The notes below the pieces were generated by a model. It searched no databases, was not told the origin of the DNA, and was given only the letters and a program-made list of their open reading frames with translations. This document shows positions 1-57,060 of a DNA stretch of 64,000 nucleotides, one piece after another; the first letter of the stretch is position 1; every line of letters begins with the position of its first letter. The translations under genes were made by a program, and so were the position numbers. Source of the DNA: Branchiostoma floridae (taxonomy: Eukaryota; Chordata; Leptocardii; Amphioxiformes; Branchiostomatidae); the NCBI RefSeq assembly GCF_000003815.2, contig NC_049985.1:11399699-11463698 (forward strand), in the 5' to 3' direction.

Positions 1-1706
1 TCCCTTCATCAGGGAGACGTGCAAAGAGAAAATCATCGTCGTCAAGCGTTAGTAACGACAAACGGTCGCCGAAGCAGCCGCAAATGGGAGTGGGGATGGT
101 CAGGAGGGACTCTGCCAAGAAGGAAACCAAAAAAGTGGCCTTGAAAAGCAAAAATTCTTTGGACGATGATGTCTTTAAAGTGAAAGACGTCATAATCACC
201 GAGAAGTCACACGACAAAACACAAGCAAAAGTAGAAGTAGAAGAAGACAGTGGCAAAGCGACAAAATACGACAAAAGTACTAAACCTGCTACAAGTGGTA
301 AGAGCAAGACTGGTGACGACGTGAAGCGAGGAGAACACAACGTCGTCAAAACAGCAGGGGCTGGCGAACCGGTCCGAACAGGGGCCATAAGGAACGGCAA
401 AACAGAAGAAAAGACTGAAAATAAAGATGTTGACTGGGAAGAACATGACGACGAACGAATGGGACCGGAAACTCTTCAGAGGAAACTAAGCATAGCCAAA
501 CGAATCAGGATTCATAATGGCTTCATCAAACAACAGCATCCAGGCTCCGAGGAAAAGGAGCCTTCTCAAGTTCAAAACGTCAAAAGGGAAGACAACCACG
601 CAGTAAAAAATGCCGACAAAGAAGAAAACCACGCAGTAAAAAATGTCAAAAAGGAGGAAAACCACGCCGTACAAAATCTCAAAAAGAAAGAACCCCCCTC
701 AGTAAAAAATGTCAAAAAAGACGAAAACCACGCCGTACAAAATGTCAACGCTGAAGAAAATCATCAAGCTGATAATAAGCGCCACTCTTCTGCGTCCGTG
801 GCAAGCTCGGGCTCCGGTGAAGAGGGTTCTAAAGACGGTATGGTGAGGAAGATACTGGGCGGTTACCAAGAATCCGGAACGCTTGGCGGCAGGGGCTCAG
901 GGTTCGGTAAGTTCGTGGATCCCGGGGGTGTGGCCGTGTCAGACAAGGAGCTGTACGTCGCAGACTACGGGAAGGATCAAATCCTGGTGTTCGATCTGCA
1001 AGGAAACTACCAGCGGTGCTTCAGGACGACTCTGCCTGGATCCGACTGCAACGTCATGAAGCCACACGACGTTGCACTTGACCGTGATGGCCACCTGTGG
1101 GTATCCGGGCACGAGGAGGACGACATCGCCGTGCAGTATTCCGTGGACGGGAACTTCCGACACAAGATTCGCCTGCCTCATGCCACCATTGCGCGTGGCA
1201 TTGCGGTGAACATGGACAAGAACTACGTCCTGGTGACCGAGACTAACGGCACGAGCGGGGTTGTGCGGGTGCTGCGGTCTGACGGCTCACTCTTGCGGAC
1301 TGTAGGAGGACAGCAGGACATGAAAGTTCCGCGGTACCTGGCTGTGGACAGAGATGGGAACATCCTTGTCTCCGACAGCGCAGCTCGCGGCATCTTTGCG
1401 TACGACGAGGACGGAAACTTCAGGTTCAAGTTTGGCGGGGATGGTAGCGGGGAAGGGCAGCTTAGGGGACATCGTGGGATAGCTACGGACAACTCTGGCA
1501 ATATCATCGTGGCAGACTGCGAGAACCATCGCGTGGAGAAGTTCAACTGTGACGGACAGTTCGCCGGTCACCTCGCCACGGGTGTCCAGGAGCCCTGGGC
1601 AGTGGCCGTGGGACCGGCCGGACATATCGTACTGACGGACAGGCATTCTCACACTGTCACCATCGCACAAGCCGCCGTCAGAGGGCGAAAGGAGAGCTAT
1701 ATCTAA
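1..1706 (+). CDS. NHL-repeat protein, 3' part (TRIM/NHL-like C-terminus), partial at window edge
   Basis: The frame is open from the first bases of the window to a TAA at 1704-1706. The first in-frame ATG is at 84, but upstream codons stay open (Ser/Lys-rich), so this is probably the last exon of a longer gene. Residues about 1-250 (from that ATG) are Lys/Glu/Asn-rich, low-complexity and probably disordered. From about residue 255 to the end are NHL-type beta-propeller blades, with recurrent patterns such as FVDPGGVAVS, LYVADYGKDQILVFD, KVPRYLAVDRDGNILVSD and GIATDNSGNIIVADCENHRVEKF. NHL propellers usually bind RNA or protein and often follow RING, B-box and coiled-coil regions in TRIM proteins; any such domains would lie upstream of the window and are not seen. 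The call of NHL protein is firm; the TRIM relationship is inference. A 33-bp tandem repeat lies inside the linker. Confidence 0.85.
   Translation, partial: PSSGRRAKRKSSSSSVSNDKRSPKQPQMGVGMVRRDSAKKETKKVALKSKNSLDDDVFKVKDVIITEKSHDKTQAKVEVEEDSGKATKYDKSTKPATSGKSKTGDDVKRGEHNVVKTAGAGEPVRTGAIRNGKTEEKTENKDVDWEEHDDERMGPETLQRKLSIAKRIRIHNGFIKQQHPGSEEKEPSQVQNVKREDNHAVKNADKEENHAVKNVKKEENHAVQNLKKKEPPSVKNVKKDENHAVQNVNAEENHQADNKRHSSASVASSGSGEEGSKDGMVRKILGGYQESGTLGGRGSGFGKFVDPGGVAVSDKELYVADYGKDQILVFDLQGNYQRCFRTTLPGSDCNVMKPHDVALDRDGHLWVSGHEEDDIAVQYSVDGNFRHKIRLPHATIARGIAVNMDKNYVLVTETNGTSGVVRVLRSDGSLLRTVGGQQDMKVPRYLAVDRDGNILVSDSAARGIFAYDEDGNFRFKFGGDGSGEGQLRGHRGIATDNSGNIIVADCENHRVEKFNCDGQFAGHLATGVQEPWAVAVGPAGHIVLTDRHSHTVTIAQAAVRGRKESYI
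567..764 (+). repeat. 33-bp coding minisatellite (6 copies) in the NHL protein linker
   Basis: Six consecutive 33-bp units encode 11-residue variants such as AVKNVKKEENH, AVQNLKKKEPP and SVKNVKKDENH. All units keep the frame. The substitutions look like a decaying but in-frame expansion of a charged linker before the propeller. Confidence 0.85.
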
Positions 1707-13015: not shown

Positions 13016-15344
13016 ATGGCATCTGGGGCCAAAAGGAAACGCCAACAGTACCATCAGGCTGACATGGAGGCTGCTCTGGAGGCAGCAAACAATGGCGCCT
13101 CTGTCTACAGCCTGGCCAAAAAGTTTGGAATTCCGCGAACAACCCTGATTGGTCGCATAAAAGGTCACCATGGAGAGGTGCAAGGAAGACCGTCAGTCTT
13201 GACACCCGAGGACGAGGAGGCCCTTGTCGGCTACGCCAAGTACATGTCCGACAGGGGCTTCCCTCTCACCGTAAGGGTCACAAAGGCCCTTGCGCAACAA
13301 ATTGAGATTAAAAGAGCTAAGGGCCGCGGAGAGTCACCGAGGTTTAAGGAGGCTGGGCCGGGCAAGAAGTGGTGGCGAGGCTTCAAGCGTCGCCATCCCG
13401 ACATCAGCCTCCGGTCCCCTGACCAGCTAGACAAGGAGAGAGCACTCATGGCCACCCCAGGAGTGATCTTCGAATATTTCTTGATGCTTGAAGACAAACT
13501 AACAGAGGCGAATGCCAAAAACAAAAACCCACATGTAATCTATAACGCTGACGAAACAGGCGTGGATCTTTCCGCGAAAATATCTAAGGTTATAGTAACC
13601 CGCGGAGAGAAGAAGTCTCCTTCACGGAGAGTTGGAAGCCGTGACCATGTGTCGGCACTGGTGTGTGTGTCAGCGGCAGGGCAGACGGTGCCACCAATGA
13701 TAGTCTTTAGCAAAGGCTTTCCGGGAGGCGCCTACACAGAGGGTGGACCCGCAAATGCCATCTATGGGTTCTCCGATTCGGGTTTTATCGACGAGTTTCT
13801 CTTCGAAAGGTGGTTTACGAAAGTATTCCTATCTCACTGCCACAAAGAGCGCCCAATTGTTTTGATCGTTGACCAGCATTATTCTCACTTCACACTTAAA
13901 GTCCTAGAAGCCGCCGTTGCCAACAACGTGGTCATCCTCGGTCTCCCACCACACTGTACACACTTTCTACAGCCCCTGGATGTCGGCATCTTCGCACCGC
14001 TCAAGTCGAAGTGGGCCCTCACCCTAGAAGTAATGCAGGCTGCGAACCCGCATTTTCAGGTCACAAAACGCAATTTTGCGAAGATATTCAATACTGTATA
14101 CGACCATACAGTCACTCCATCATTGATAAAATCGTCTTTCCAAAAGAGTGGCATATTCCCACTGAATGAAGACGCAATTGACGACCGTTGGGTTAAGATG
14201 TCGGCGATCCCTGGAGAGAAGTTTTCTTCTGCCACTCCTCCACCACATCCCTCGACTTCTGCCTCTGCCACTCCTCCATCACAGCCGTCGACTTCTGCCT
14301 CTGCCACTCCTCCACCACAGCCGTCGACTTCTACCTCTGTCACTCCTCCACCACAGCCGTCGACTTCTGCCTCTGCCACTCCTCCACCACATCCCTCGAC
14401 TTCTGCCTCTGCCACTCCTCCACCACAGCCGTCGACTTCTACCTCTGTCACTCCTCCACCACATCCGTCGACTTCTGCCTCTGTCACTCCTCCACCACAG
14501 CCGTCGACTTCTACCTCTGTCANNNNNNNNNNNNNNNNNNNNNNNNNNNNNNNNNNNNNNNNNNNNNNNNNNNNNNNNNNNNNNNNNNNNNNNNNNNNNN
14601 NNNNNNNNNNNNNNNNNNNNNNNNNNNNNNNNNNNNNNNNNNNNNNNNNNNNNNNNNNNNNNNNNNNNNNNNNNNNNNNNNNNNNNNNNNNNNNNNNNNN
14701 NNNNNNACGGGAAGGGTTCTGACTCATGACGAAATGATAATCTGAGATCAGACAAAAGGAAACAGAGAAGAAAGAAAAAGAGGAACGCAAAGAGAAACGA
14801 AAGACTGAGCTCAACAAAAAGCGAGAAGAGAAAAAACAGAAAGAGTTAGAAAAAACGCGAAAGAAGGAAGAGAGACAAGCTGAAGCTAAAAGGAAACTGG
14901 AAGAGAAGGAAGCCAGAAAGAGAAAGAGAGAAGAGGGCAAGCTACAGGCACAAAAGAAGAAGAGGCGGGAGAATGGAGAGGAGAAGGAGAATCAACGGCA
15001 GCCTGTCGATGATCCTGGCTCATCCAGTAAAACAGTGGTAGGTAAACGGACTAATGCCGCATTTAGCATTTAAGCACATGTTATGGTTTGAATGAATACC
15101 GTTTGCACTCAAAACAGATATGAAACATAAAATCACGGTTATCTAGTCGACTCAATTACATATAATTTCAATATAATGTTTGATTTTGTTGTATTCTACA
15201 ACTATTCAAATAAACTCAATGACGCTTACATTTTGCTGTTGTTTACAGACACAGTCCAGACAGCGGAAGCCTCCGACATGGCTGTCACTATACTATGAAA
15301 CAGGCGATGACGATGTGGAAGTCCAGGAAGATCTCGAGAGCTAG
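13016..15344 (+). CDS. Tigger/pogo-family DDE transposase with Psq-type HTH, interrupted by an assembly gap
   Basis: The ATG at 13016 directly follows an acceptor-like TCTCTTTATTAG, so a non-coding first exon is likely (donor candidate near 12631). Residues about 10-55 form a Psq/pipsqueak-like helix-turn-helix (VYSLAKKFGIPRTTL). The DDE core shows YNADETG (D179), VDQHYSH (D286) and LQPLDVGIFAPLK (D322), a D-35-D spacing typical of pogo/Tigger, so catalysis may be intact. Then come at least eight 12-residue Pro/Ser/Thr repeats running into the N gap (14523-14706). After the gap, a Lys/Glu-rich coiled-coil-like tail is open from about 14741 to 15037 (donor GTAGGT). It joins an exon at 15249-15344 ending DLES and TAG. 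The join across the gap is unknown because the tail frame has a TAA just upstream, implying an intron or mis-sized gap. Confidence 0.85.
14228..14522 (+). repeat. 36-bp coding minisatellite in the transposase, truncated by gap
   Basis: About 8.2 units of a 36-bp repeat encode SATPPPHPSTSA-like dodecapeptides. Variation is limited to a few codons (H/Q, A/T, A/V). The array runs straight into the N block, so its true copy number is unknown. Confidence 0.92.
14523..14706. other. Assembly gap (184 N)
   Basis: Run of N inside the transposase minisatellite; probably an unresolved repeat expansion. No reading frame across it can be trusted. Confidence 0.95.
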
Positions 15345-50453: not shown

Positions 50454-53400
50454 TCATAGTACTGCGTCTTTTGCATTTGCAGCCCAGCTCGTCAGCCGAG
50501 GCCCCTTCCTCTGCCAGTCCTGCAGCTCGGACGGACGGTGGTAGATACGGACGTACCTGTAAGATCGAAACATATTGGTAAAAACTTTATTCATTTGACG
50601 GCTGTGTTTCACATCATCTCCAACTTTGTTTAGCTTTCAGTGTCCACCACGGTATTTTATTCTAAACTGAGATCTTGTGAGTCTATATTTTATAAGCTCA
50701 TGTACCTCATTATAGTTGTACATCCAACTTCATATCGTCGTAATCAAGCAAAATCATCATTCGTAAAAAAAAAGGTCGATCGCAAAAGCCAAGCCGAACA
50801 CAATAGAGATAACTGAAATTTACCAATGACTCGCTATGTTGCGTTCTACATACTTGAGTAGAGAGCAGCTAGAAAGAACACATCTTTACCTGCAGTGTGA
50901 GCGTATTTTCTCCATCTCGTTCATCTGTGCCGTTAGTGTATCTCTCGGGGTGGGCGCTAGGAGGCGCTTGGACTGACGCATGAGCAGACCTCCACTGTCG
51001 TCATCCTGCCTCTCCACAACGATCACAGGCTGCTGATTGGCTGGTAGGGACAATGACGTCAGAATATAAATAAGTTTAAAAGTGTATACAGAAACTGTAC
51101 ATTTTACATCTTATGCACTGTGTGGTCATTAGAGCATTTAGTATAACACGCAGAATCATTGCGTTGGAAATTGTATAACTATCGGTTCTGTTGAATTCGA
51201 ACTGAGCTAGGGCCATTGCTTTCTGTTATTATGCATTAGTTCATAAAAGGAAACTTTTGGCAATGAACAACAACAATACATGCATACCTTCATCGTCCAT
51301 TTTCTTAAGAAAACAGCTGACTTTTTCCCTTTGCTGTTGCTCCTTTCTCCGGACGTCTTCTAGTAACTTTTGTCTTGTCAGTCTTTCTCTTCTCTGTGGA
51401 ACCTTAAAGTAGTCATAGATATCTACTTTTGTAGAAATGTGTTTCTGCTCCGGCGTGAAGTCCCCGTTTGCTTCCTTTTTGTACACGGTAACCTCGTAGT
51501 TGTCTGGGAGTTTCTTCTTCTTCTTCCGCCAAAGACTCCCCGTAGAAGAGCTCCCACATACAGACCCTTGTGGGACAGACAAATGTTTCGCTCCCGTTGA
51601 ATTTTTCCTGCTCTGCTTTCCTTTGTCTTTGTCCTTCTTTTTCTTGGACTCCTTTTGAAGGTCTTTCGTGTTTTCAACCGAACTTGAGGTAAGATTCTCG
51701 TTATTGTTGTCATTTTTGTCGTCCAATCGCGACTTGGGATCATTTGTCGCTGTGACAACGTCAATCACGTCATCTGAGGGAATTCTGGGTAACGTATTTT
51801 CTTGCTGATCTGTCGTTTGTGGTCTACCGTCGACAGTCGTTCTTTCACTGACACTCGACTCATCGTCGTCAGACAGTTTGGAGTTTAATGACATATTTTC
51901 GTCTTGCGATCTGTCACCCAAAGGCGGTAAAGTCTTTTTGGAAGTTCTTCCTTTCTTATTTCTATTCCCTTTCTTCTTCTTGCTATTTGTTCCTTCCTTG
52001 TCTTGTCTGTTCGCTTTTGAATCGTTTTCCTTTAAGACATCTTCTCCGTTTGAAGGTTGGATATCATAAGTCTTCTGCAGAGAAGACAATAACGACGCCG
52101 TCTCTTCTTGTATGGAAGACTTTCTCCTCCCTGGGTGGAAGGAATCCGGAACATCGAGGAAAGGGCTGCCGGGCGAGCGCTCCGGATTTTCCGGATTGTG
52201 GCTCGTCCCCATAAAGTCGTGTCCAATGTGACCTTCCACGACAAGGGCGGCTGGTTGTGCTCTCCCATCGTTGTTGTGAGATGGTTGTGCTTCTGTCTTC
52301 TTTGTGAGGTCCAGGACATCACTATTAGCTGCAAATAGAGATGTTTACAGATGTTATTTAATGATTATGATAACGAACAGGAGAGAAGGAATAGTGGGGC
52401 GGGCTACTCTCCAAGCAGAGGTTGATGGTTAAAAATCTATAGCTGACGACATATTATCATTATGTATTTCCATATGCTATATGCTCAACTCATATATCCG
52501 CCTACGTAGGCCAATATACTTTATTCCGAATGCGAGACCACATCACCCATACATGACTGTGTTGTTATCGATATCAATAGTATTTTGTTGTTATGTGTGT
52601 AGCCCATCCTCCTACGCAGGGACATCCAATAGCCAAACTGCCTGTCTGGCTGTTGGATGTCCCTGCGTAGGAGGATGGTGTAGCCTCGCAGCTCCATTGT
52701 CTATATAGCTAGTAGTTGTTATTGGTTGCCATTGTACCTTATGCGATTGTTACCTTTGCCAGAATGGCTAAGGTTATGTTTTCGGTTTGGTGGTGTGGTT
52801 CTCCCCGTTTGTGAGCAGCATAACTCGAGAGGACTTCGATGGATGCAGCTGATATTTGGTGGGTGGGTAGGGGTGTGGAAGACGAAGGTCGAGTTCGATA
52901 ATGGGCCTCCTAGCGGCTTGCTAAGGTACTGCAGCAGGACCTGTATGCTTGATATCTCGCGTTCCGGACATGCTGCGGTCGTGATTTTTGAGCGTTAGGG
53001 AGCCCTTAAAGCAGGGAGTGATTGCTGCGAGTTTGGGCCCCCTAGTGGCTTTCATGGAAGTGCAGGCGCCGGTTTAATTGCAAACTTTTGTCTGCGGACA
53101 GCATAACTCGAGAAGACTTTGACGGATGCAGCTGGTATTTGGTGGGTGGGTAGGGGTCTGGGAAACGAAGGGGGAGTTCGATAATGGGCCCCCTAGCGGC
53201 TTCCCTTGGTACTGCAGTGCAACTTCCGGGTGTGTTTTTCCATCTTCTGAACATGGTATGGCCACGAGTTTTGGGTGTTAGATAGCTGTTGTGCTCAGGA
53301 GTTAGTGACATAAGTTTGGGCCCCCTAGCGGCTAGTGTAGGGATAGCAGGGGCATTCTTGTCGAAAACCTCTGAAGCAGTACAACCCCACTCCACCTTAG

Positions 53401-56400
53401 CAGCTGTCAGCACAGTTGAGGGGTTCCTGGTCCATGAATTGGACTGGCCTATGATCAGTCAGTACTGTGAGCAACCTGATATTTCAGAGGTGGAAAGGTC
53501 AGACCTTGCAAATGTGTTAGTTGACCCTTAGGCCATATGATCAACTTGGCAAGCCAAAATGATGGGCTTATGTACATAACAACGGTCTTAGTCTGTATTC
53601 TTCTCCTTCCTTTGAGTTTGAGAGGTAGGTACACTGACATCTCTCTTTTCACTACATGGTCTCAATTTGAGCTGTCCTTGCAGTAGTCTTTTNNNNNNNN
53701 NNNNNNNNNNNNNNNNNNNNNNNNNNNNNNNNNNNNNNNNNNNNNNNNNNNNNNNNNNNNNNNNNNNNNNNNNNNNNNNNNNNNNNNNNNNNCATTTTCA
53801 GTCTCAAAGCCTTCATGCATTCAAGTCTGTCTCCAAAGAGTCAGAACTTTGAAGCTTGAACTATGTAGAGCATGTATCTTACCTTTTATATCATATGGTT
53901 GTGAGATTTGGGGCAGAGCTAATTCAGAAGACAATTGCCCAGCAGAAATTACACGGAGGTGATTTTGTGGAAAATCTTTTGGGTGTACATAGAGATACAA
54001 GGAACATGAGGTAGTAGAGCAGAGCTTGGGACATTGTTCCCAATTGACTTACATATATTTAATGTACAGTCAAGTTGTGGCTACGCTTCAAACATTCGGA
54101 CTTTTCAACACATCCCCTATTGTGAGTAGGCGTGTTATCACTCTGTCATCAAATTGAATATGAACTGATGAACAGCTGTAAGGAATTCAGGTTACAAGGC
54201 GTAAGGGAAATTTGAAACGATATCGGTTACTTTTTTCTATGGATGTCTGAATTCACAGTTAGACAATAAGTACATAATGTACATTGTTAAAAATGTGGTT
54301 GAAAGATATATATATCCAGATATGTTTTCATTGACTGTCTACAAAAAAGTAAAGAAGGGATTCTCCAGGGAATATTATATAAAATTTTCTAGATAAATAT
54401 GTGGTAGAGTCCATTCCAAGACACCATGAGGGTTTTTAGGCGATATTTATAATTAGTCTAAATCATTTTGAATAAAAGAATATCTGAGCCACAATAATTA
54501 AATTATTTTCAAAAAATTGACTAAGAAAATACTCATCTATTTGAATTTCTTTGAATATTTTAGAAACATTTTGAAAGTAACTGTACAAAAATATCTTTAT
54601 TTAGAATAATTGTGAAACCTCTCTGTGATTATTTCACATTTACAAATATTTACAAAAAATGGTAAACCTGGCCCAAATGGTAGAATTAGTTTATTGCCCC
54701 CATAAAAGTAAGCCCCTATTGTTGCATCTGTATATTTTTAGACTTCACTGCTGGGCACTGGTGGATCCTTTGTGGTGGGCCATTGTTGCATGGCACCCAA
54801 CCATACTTTGCAAGGATGTGTGAATTGCTATCTTCCCAGCCCACCGAACCATTTACAAAAAATGGTAGAAAATGGTAGAAAATGGTAGAATGCTGTTATC
54901 ATTATTTAGAAACCATTAGAAGTATCCAATTTCACACCATGAATATTTCCAAAGTTTTACAGGACCAGGGAAATATTTATAAAGTTGAAACAGTGTTAAG
55001 AATATTTCTGAAGTATCAAATGTCCTAGACATATAATTACAAAACTTTAAAATCAATTCTAAACAATGGCAACAAACATCCGCATGGTGTCTTGGAATGG
55101 ACTCTATGGTGGGCTTTGTGCAAACTTAGAAGTAGTGCCTACCCCCTTGCAATTGTGACAGGGTGGTGGAAATGGTACTTGTTTCTCGATGTTTTAAGCT
55201 TGAGGGTGACTTCTGAACAGTTTCATACAACTAAAATGCACATTTGTGGAGTTATGGTTTTGGAGCTGAGGGGTTGCCGCACAAACCTGGACAATAGACT
55301 AAAACCACTGCGACAATTTTACCTTTGCCAGAATGGTAAGGTTAGGTTTTGGATGTGTTTGTGTGTCTGTTTGTGTGTTAACAGCATAACTCGAGAAGCC
55401 TGGGATGGATCCTGATGATATTTGGTAGGTGGGTAGGGATCGGGAAACGAAGGTCAAGTTTGATAATGGACCCCCTAGCGGCTTGCTAAGGTACAGTTAG
55501 ACAATAAGTACATAATGTACATTGTTAAAAATGTGGTTGAAAGATATATATATCCAGATATGTTTTCATTGACTGTCTACAAAAAAGTAAAGAAGGGATT
55601 CTCCAGGGAATATTATATAAAATTTTCTAGATAAATATGTGGTATGGTGGGCTTTGTGCAAACTTAGAAGTAGTGCCTACCCCCTTGCAATTGTGACAGG
55701 GTGGTGGAAATGGTACTTGTTTCTCGATGCTTTAAGCTTGAGGGTGACTTCTGAACAGTTTCATACAACTAAAATGCACATTTGTGGAGTTATGGTTTTG
55801 GAGCTGAGGGGTTGCGTAGCGTAAGTGAAGACCTAAATAATGAGATACCAATTATGCAAATCAACAGCTAATTTGCCTAATCAATTAGGAAAAGTACAAA
55901 AACCCACTGCATTTCATTATAGTACTTTCATCAAAGTTGTCACATATGTAACTGAGAAAGAGGGAAGAGAGTAAGGGGTGTATTTTATTTAAGACTGAAA
56001 GAGAATAAGTCGAGAATGGATCAAAGGATCATCATGATTTTTGGTATGCTGATAGCTTAAGTAATGCTTGATACAATTTGATATCGATTAATGGTACCTT
56101 GGGATCTAATTTGCATAATCAATGTTGAAATTTTATAAACCAACTCCAAGCATATAATTATAAAGAAAATGAAATGAGTAACGCATTTGTCTACAGACAT
56201 CATTCTACATAACAAACCTTGTTATTTGGCAAAGGTATGTTTGAGCAATAAAGTTCATTATGTTTACCTGCAGATTCCGAGATCGGAGGAAGCTCCTTGG
56301 CCAGCTGGCGGGCTCGCTCCTGCCGCCGCCGCTCCCGCTCCACTTCCAGCTTCTTCCGCTTGGTGGCTGTCTTCATGAGGGAAACGTACAGGGGGCGCTG

Positions 56401-57060
56401 GTCTCGGTTCATCTGTACCATGGCGTTGTTGTGCTGGCGGTACCACGTATCCAGCTGTGGCAAGGGAACGTGCAAACATTGGTGTACAATATTGCATTTC
56501 AAAGAGCCCAATTATTTGTGCAGAAGTAATATTTAGTGTAGTGCATTCTTGATAGAATTGAACAATGGCGTTTTGGGGAGAACCTCTTTGAACTGACGTA
56601 AAATAATCGCAATTTATGATTAGTTACATCACTGGGACATTTTTAAAGTAATAGAGGTTTTGAAGGAAATGCAAGTTACACAAAACTGTAGCCTGACTAA
56701 AATCGTGCTCCTAGTGGCCGACCTTACAGTTGCCACCTTCTAGACTGTGTAAACATAGCAGGCTACACAAAACTGATACATCGGAAAAAGGTATTTTACA
56801 TTTGACATTCTTACAATTCAAACAAATACAAACAGAAACAACTATCTATTTACGACAACCTAAGACAGAGTAGATCCAAGTGATGTCCTCACCTTTTTGC
56901 CGAGGTTCCTTTTCTCGGAGATGATGTTACTGAAGAGTGATTGTGACTGCGCCCCCGTGCGGGCGACCCGTGCCGAGTCCTGCCCGACAGCGGTCAGCAT
57001 GCTCTCGCTGCCCAGGAAGTTCTCCCGCAGGATCTCAAACGTGCTTTTATTCGCATGCAT
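50454..57060 (-). CDS. Unrecognised Lys/Glu-rich protein (549 aa, 5 exons)
   Basis: Exons 57060-56893, 56454-56268, 52328-51288, 51040-50890 and 50556-50454 have GT/AG borders and matching phases (0, 1, 1, 2), totalling 1650 nt with a TGA stop. An in-frame TAG 18-16 bases upstream supports the ATG at 57060. Exons 1-2 look ordered and helical (NKSTFEILRENFLGSESMLT, DTWYRQHNNAMVQMNRDQRP), ending in a strongly charged coiled-coil-like KRKKLEVERERRRQERARQL. Exon 3 is long, polar and largely disordered with Lys runs, then a more regular YEVTVYKKEANGDFTPEQKH and IYDYFKVPQRRERLTRQKL. The C-terminus is RIYHRPSELQDWQRKGP. No family is recognised; an architectural or cytoskeletal role is only a guess. 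The 3.9-kb intron 2 is packed with repeats and a gap. Confidence 0.78.
52605..52677. mobile_element. 73-bp hairpin mini-transposon with 8-bp target duplication
   Basis: The arms CATCCTCCTACGCAGGGACA... and their complement pair almost perfectly over about 31 bases around a short loop. GTGTAGCC is repeated directly outside both ends (52597-52604 and 52678-52685). An 8-bp duplication is typical of hAT elements. Confidence 0.82.
52743..53330. repeat. About 283-bp tandem repeat, two units
   Basis: CATAACTCGAGA...GGTGGGTGGGTAGGGG...GATAATGGGCC.CCTAGCGG occurs at about 52818-52920 and about 53101-53200. GGGCCCCCTAG-GGCT follows each unit (53035, 53317). The region begins TACCTTTGCCAGAATGG, which recurs at 55318. 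Confidence 0.8.
53693..53792. other. Assembly gap (100 N)
   Basis: Exactly 100 N inside the second intron of the 549-aa gene. Confidence 0.95.
54255..55277. repeat. Segment duplicated at 55493-55815, copy with insertion
   Basis: After removing the 698-bp element plus one TA, this copy is exactly 323 bases, the same length as 55493-55815, and nearly identical by eye. Confidence 0.92.
54407..55104. mobile_element. 698-bp TA-flanked DNA transposon (non-autonomous, mariner-like)
   Basis: It starts GAGTCCATTCCAAGACACC and ends with the reverse complement; the inverted repeat runs 22 bases perfectly. TA lies at both borders (54405-54406 and 55105-55106). The duplicated locus at 55643-55644 has a single TA and no insert. 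The interior is A/T-rich with no ORF of note. Class inferred from the TA duplication. Confidence 0.93.
55317..55492. repeat. Further copy of the 52.7-53.3 kb repeat
   Basis: It has TACCTTTGCCAGAATGG, CATAACTCGAGAAG, GGTAGGTGGGTAGGGA and GACCCCCTAGCGGCTTGC in the same order and spacing as the units at 52743-53330. Confidence 0.8.
55493..55815. repeat. 323-bp duplicated segment, empty-site copy
   Basis: It contains the two halves found at 54255-54406 and 55105-55277 directly joined at GTGGTATGGTGGG. Confidence 0.92.
56689..56765. mobile_element. Mutator-like MITE (TAGCCTG family), 77 bp, perfect 10-bp duplication
   Basis: The ends are TAGCCTG and CAGGCTA. The direct repeat CACAAAACTG flanks it (56679-56688 and 56766-56775). 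It lies in intron 1 of the 549-aa gene. Confidence 0.87.

What the first reader, a model, noticed from the sequence alone, without database searches (positions are those of the whole stretch)
54255..55815. Transposon insertion with its empty site preserved in a neighbouring duplicate
A 323-bp segment is present twice. One copy carries a 698-bp element with 22-bp perfect inverted ends and TA on both sides; the other has a single TA at the same point. The arithmetic is exact: 1023 minus 700 equals 323. This gives a natural before/after pair and dates the insertion after the duplication, or the duplication from an uninserted allele.
Basis: seen in the sequence. Interest (0 to 1): 0.8.

Follow-up and report, generated by a model that had tools for sequence, protein, structure and literature searches.

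The report
Transposon nested inside a rolling-circle repeat
A short cut-and-paste transposon sits inside one copy of a larger, very common mobile repeat in what looks like a lancelet genome, and the "empty site" next to it is a displaced piece of that same repeat, so the find is real but mostly ordinary.

Summary
E is a young, high-copy MITE-like family: 40 near full-length scored matches including this one, 97-100% identical; 922 matches to its end against 0 for the reversed control; TA on both sides in 8 of 8 fetched copies.

The "duplicate" needs rereading. The 323 bp is internal to a dispersed 2.7-kb repeat (X) with Helentron/HINE-like ends; 29 other fetched loci hold it without E (they were found with an E-free query). 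The second copy is no plain local duplication: it stands where X normally has a different 320-bp stretch, replacing it with 321 bp, and each of its junctions occurs once in the genome. So E entered an existing X copy, but its order relative to the second piece is not established. Whether the swap is real or an assembly error cannot be decided here.

Verdict: nested transposition, new members of known kinds. E's autonomous partner was not found. The odd remainder is the nearly length-preserving swap.

The parts
52751..56240 (+). X: copy of a dispersed 2.7-kb non-autonomous Helentron/HINE-like element; last 17 bp of the family's 3' end (with the hairpin) missing here
   Evidence: Blocks of 97.9-99.4% identity to the 17-copy consensus; ends compared
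53693..53792 (.). 100-N gap inside X; the consensus has 6 bp between the blocks on either side, so nothing is known to be missing, but something could be hidden
54255..54406 (+). A, left part (X consensus 1401-1552), ends in the target TA (54405-54406)
54407..55104 (+). E: 698-bp TA-duplicating MITE-like transposon
54407..54428 (+). left 22-bp inverted end of E
55083..55104 (-). right 22-bp inverted end of E
55105..55277 (+). A, right part, begins with the second TA
55278..55492 (+). B: next stretch of X in normal order; holds an internal relative of X's own 5' end
55493..55815 (+). A': second, E-free copy of the 323 bp (X consensus 1401-1723), standing where X1942-2261 belongs; 321 bp of it replace 320 bp
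   Evidence: (junctions seen once each)
55816..56240 (+). D: X resumes (consensus 2262-2686)

Best explanation
A 698-bp non-autonomous cut-and-paste transposon (MITE-like, TA target duplication, most probably moved by a Tc1/mariner-type transposase made elsewhere) inserted at a TA inside one copy of a 2.7-kb non-autonomous element that looks like a Helentron/HINE, a rolling-circle type. Shown: the insertion, its ends, the TA duplication, the E-free site in 29 other loci, and that both elements are dispersed families. Inferred: the transposase type, rolling-circle movement of X, and the species (Branchiostoma floridae). The neighbouring empty 323 bp is a displaced piece of the same repeat standing in place of a different 320-bp piece; how it got there (assembly error or a real template-switch patch) is open.
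For: Exact empty-site alignment with one TA. TA on both sides in 8 of 8 fetched E copies, 1-7 substitutions from their majority sequence. 40 near full-length scored matches; 922 end matches, control 0. The 323 bp lies inside X in 29 other loci. X: T before the left end in 21 of 21 loci where that end could be placed, T after the right end in 20 of 20 with both ends found, 11-bp inverted repeat at and near the ends and a 3' hairpin, features listed for Helentrons/HINEs in PMC4067079 (passages).
Against: No transposase carrying E's ends was found, so Tc1/mariner rests on the TA duplication alone. X's inverted repeat is 11 bp and 19 bp from the 3' end, against 12-15 bp and 38-60 bp in the mite families of PMC4067079, and no Rep/helicase partner was sought. 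The 29 loci were fetched with an E-free query, so copies of X carrying E would have ranked low.
Confidence: 0.87

Rival explanations
1. One reading: a local 323-bp duplication, one copy of which later received the transposon (or which was made from an uninserted allele), so that the pair dates the insertion.
For: The two copies lie close together, differ by one base and share the subfamily variants T66 and C170.
Against: The 323 bp is in at least 40 genomic places; 7 of 27 other loci carry both variants and three of them are identical to A'; A' replaces another 320 bp of X instead of being added.
Confidence: 0.2
2. The swap of 320 bp for 321 bp is an assembly error inside a near-identical high-copy repeat; the true locus is X with E and the normal segment.
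For: Both junctions occur once in the genome; an N gap lies in the same X copy; the likely assembly is Sanger shotgun by ARACHNE with haplotypes merged (PMC7269912 passages); total length is almost unchanged.
Against: Neither junction is explained by long shared sequence (2 bases at the left, none at the right), which an overlap-based error would normally need; none of 29 other loci shows a like swap.
Confidence: 0.5
3. E was once in both copies, or in all X, and left A' by clean excision.
For: A' has one intact TA.
Against: 29 of 29 other fetched loci are E-free with an intact site (query bias noted), so E-free is most simply the older state; Tc1/mariner excision usually leaves a footprint (recalled).
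Confidence: 0.03

Closest known systems
MITEs of the Tc1/mariner type
   Same: TA duplicated, perfect terminal inverted repeats, no coding frame (longest stop-free stretch 64 codons), hundreds of young copies
   Different: 698 bp is long for a MITE (recalled); transposase not identified; whether the family has a published name was not settled (the one text search for 19 bases of its end found 0 papers; Repbase is not held)
Helentrons / HINEs (DINE-1-like), PMC4067079
   Same: inverted repeats at and near the ends, short 3' hairpin, T-T target, non-coding, tandem/composite structure
   Different: 11-bp inverted repeat 19 bp from the 3' end (12-15 bp and 38-60 bp in the mite families); 3' end CTAG; no Rep/helicase partner sought
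ISL2EU (PHIS superfamily), PMC4482050
   Same: 2-bp target duplication
   Different: ISL2EU duplicates AT in A|AT|T (passages); E duplicates TA

Membership tests
Tc1/mariner-type MITE (E) | TA target duplication | tested here: met
   Window against E-free copy; TA on both sides in 8 of 8 fetched copies
Tc1/mariner-type MITE (E) | terminal inverted repeats, no coding capacity, many similar copies of fixed length | tested here: met
   22-bp perfect ends; longest stop-free stretch 64 codons and 27 of 31 end pairs 686-708 bp apart among the first 100 listed sites; 40 matches
Tc1/mariner-type MITE (E) | autonomous partner with a Tc1/mariner/pogo transposase sharing the ends | tested here: inconclusive
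   10 of 10 DDE_3 loci lack E-like ends at up to 6 mismatches. 57 DDE_1 matches listed but not cut out; the 6 on the part of C1-C3 that the end list covers lie 109 kb or more from a listed end. Transposase_1 and DDE_Tnp_4 not searched
ISL2EU | AT target duplication | tested here: not met
   E duplicates TA; ISL2EU definition
Helentron/HINE (X) | insertion at TT without target duplication | tested here: met
   T on the left 21 of 21, T on the right 20 of 20, TT in 18 of 20. Whether a T belongs to the element is ambiguous; no empty target of X was looked for
Helentron/HINE (X) | inverted repeats at and near the ends and a 3' palindrome | tested here: met
   11-bp TACCTTTGCCA at the 5' end and inverted 19 bp from the 3' end; hairpin GTTC-GTG-GAAC 5 bp from the 3' end. 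Met in kind; values lie outside the mite ranges quoted
Helentron/HINE (X) | autonomous partner with Rep/helicase | not tested
   No search made

The most novel reading that the evidence does not exclude
The swap is real: a 320-bp stretch of a mobile element was replaced in register, with a length change of 1 bp, by a non-homologous stretch from 538-539 bp upstream in the same kind of element. One way would be a single-strand gap of fixed size filled from the wrong part of the element or a sister copy and then ligated flush: a length-preserving, non-homologous patch.
Probability: 0.12. Interest if true: 0.5.

Novelty: new member of a known kind. Interest (0 to 1): 0.22.

Why it matters
It gives defined ends and an E-free site for a young, abundant TA-transposon family, and defined ends for a young Helentron-like family, in what appears to be amphioxus. 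It also shows that high-copy repeats supply such before/after pairs freely: 3 of 29 other X loci carry other insertions with inverted ends of their own. And it warns that a neighbouring "duplicate" can be a displaced or misassembled piece of a dispersed repeat, so it should not date an insertion without a genome-wide check.

Tried and rejected
Local duplication as the only source of the pair: not needed once the 323 bp proved to be in at least 40 genomic places and inside a larger repeat.

An X subfamily with this order of segments: not seen; each junction occurs once in this assembly at up to 2 mismatches.

Autonomous partner of E: the one long end-to-end pair among the first 100 of 922 sites (1924 bp, L046) is E with a reverse-transcriptase-bearing insertion inside (the RT reading is mine, not searched). 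Ends followed by another interior gave one site each: L050 looks like a diverged relative of E, L049 has a single end; I recognised no transposase frame in either, by eye. DDE_3 loci lack E's ends. DDE_1 loci could not be cut out. The pogo-like frame in the window (13016-14722) has no E-like ends, since the 22-mer occurs only in E, and no strong inverted ends were seen around it.

A second haplotype of the locus: 56244-56900 has one full-length match, the window itself; the others are short stretches of a repeat inside it (40 of 358 candidates scored).

Viral contigs with the 22-mer: 0. Paper searches: searches gave listings; searches gave 0 papers. PMC7269912, PMC4067079 and PMC4482050 were seen as passages only; the other papers as listings only.

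Folding E as one strand gave z = -4.77 on 20 shuffles, which the inverted ends would explain; not used further.

Full report
Observation. Segment 55493-55815 (323 bp) equals 54255-55277 (1023 bp) once 700 bp are taken out, with one difference (T/C at offset 237), and the cut falls at a TA present on both sides of the insert and once in the other copy. The insert E, 54407-55104, is 698 bp, with 22-bp perfect inverted ends found nowhere else in the window at up to 3 mismatches.

E is a family. In the window's own genome (513,431,437 bases, 431 contigs) 40 near full-length matches were scored, the window's own included, at 97-100% identity, out of 1250 candidates of the first look. The 22-mer has 922 matches at up to one mismatch and the reversed control none. 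Of the first 100 listed places, 62 form 31 inward-facing pairs, 27 of them 686-708 bp apart. All 8 copies fetched are flanked by TA on both sides and differ from their majority sequence by 1-7 substitutions. The longest stop-free stretch in E is 64 codons. This is the anatomy of a young MITE with a TA duplication. Tc1/mariner is the usual source of TA duplications (recalled); ISL2EU does not fit because it duplicates AT (PMC4482050 passages). I did not find the transposase; not all transposase families were searched.

The 323 bp is not a private duplicate. A search with it scored 40 places of 121 candidates; four are identical over the whole length, the window's A' among them. In the 29 other loci fetched it lies inside a larger repeat X, with GAATTC to the left and CGCAC to the right or close variants of these. 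The first copy in the window has both of these neighbours; the second has neither. X spans 52751-56240 in the window.

What X is. Both ends were located in 20 of the 29 loci; 17 (three dropped for length) give a 2702-bp consensus, from which they differ by 0.26-1.48%. The left end TACCTTTGCCA is preceded by T in 21 of 21 loci where that end could be placed (8 of 29 could not). The right end CTCTAG is followed by T in 20 of 20, and by TT in 18. The first 11 bases recur inverted 19 bp before the 3' end, and a hairpin GTTC-GTG-GAAC lies 5 bp before it. PMC4067079 (passages) gives subterminal inverted repeats, a 3' palindrome and TT insertion for Helentrons and HINEs; its mite families have 12-15 bp repeats 38-60 bp from the 3' end, so X agrees in kind and not in measure. 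Positions 1766-1949 resemble 1-187 (83%), which suggests a composite of two such elements with captured DNA between; that is inference. X has only short frames; one looks to me like the end of a non-LTR reverse transcriptase (not searched). The window copy lacks the last 17 bp of X, hairpin included.

The swap. The window copy reads X1-942, N gap, X949-1552, E, X1551-1941, X1401-1723, X2262-2686. So A' is a stretch from 538-539 bp upstream standing where X1942-2261 belongs. The normal stretch measures 320 bp in 19 of the 21 loci where the pattern could measure it (others 319 and 329); the replacement is 321 bp. The left junction shares two bases (AC), the right none. Each junction occurs once in the genome at up to two mismatches. 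None of the 29 other loci shows such a swap. Nine have other breaks: L021, L025, L026, L027, L029, L031, L032, L034, L035. Three of these are insertions with inverted ends: L026 (ends ACGAGGGG.., at a TA), L032 (8-bp duplication) and L029.

Consequence for dating. Both window copies have variants T66 and C170, carried together by 7 of 27 other loci of that length. T237 is in the E-bearing copy and in 4 of 27 others, none of which has T66. The loci were picked by likeness to A', so these shares are biased. The data fit copying from this X before E landed, copying from another E-free X, or a misplacement in assembly.

Assembly. The long contigs met among C1-C19 are 17-35 Mb and PMC7269912 describes a B. 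floridae assembly with 19 chromosomal scaffolds from Sanger reads, ARACHNE, merged haplotypes and Chicago/Hi-C (passages). I infer that species; no call names it. In such an assembly a near-identical repeat with an N gap inside is a natural place for error. The near-perfect conservation of length is odd under either view and is left open. The right flank of X has no second full copy in this genome.

Verdict.

Noticed in passing
window 13016-14722: Open frame of 568 codons with pogo-type transposase domains (DDE_1, HTH_psq, Tc5 HTH); it runs over a 36-bp tandem repeat (14228-14519) and an N gap (14523-14706). No E-like ends near it.
   Followed up: partly
window 3-1706: Frame with NHL repeats that also carries a 33-bp-period repeat at 574-760.
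   Followed up: no
window 55493-55815: A 320-bp stretch of X replaced by 321 bp from 538-539 bp upstream, register kept to 1 bp, junctions unique in the genome. Real or assembly error unknown.
   Followed up: partly
L026 (insertion at X consensus 942): 579-bp insertion with mariner-like ends (ACGAGGGG..TTCAATAAGT; name recalled) at a TA, at the same place where the window's X copy has its N gap, so the gap might hide something.
   Followed up: partly
L032 and L029: Other insertions in X copies: 433 bp with an 8-bp duplication and TAGGGCTGGGTA ends (hAT-like by duplication length, recalled), and 960 bp with CTGGGTTTACGG-like ends.
   Followed up: partly
L031: The 3' end of one X lies directly before the 5' end of another, head to tail, as expected of rolling-circle elements or of insertion next to an X.
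   Followed up: no
L046: An E copy split by a roughly 1.2-kb insertion with a long reverse-transcriptase-like frame.
   Followed up: no
X consensus 1-187 and 1766-1949; 1979-2162 and 2225-2412: X repeats its own 5' end inside itself (83%) and has another internal repeat (84%), a sign of composite origin.
   Followed up: no
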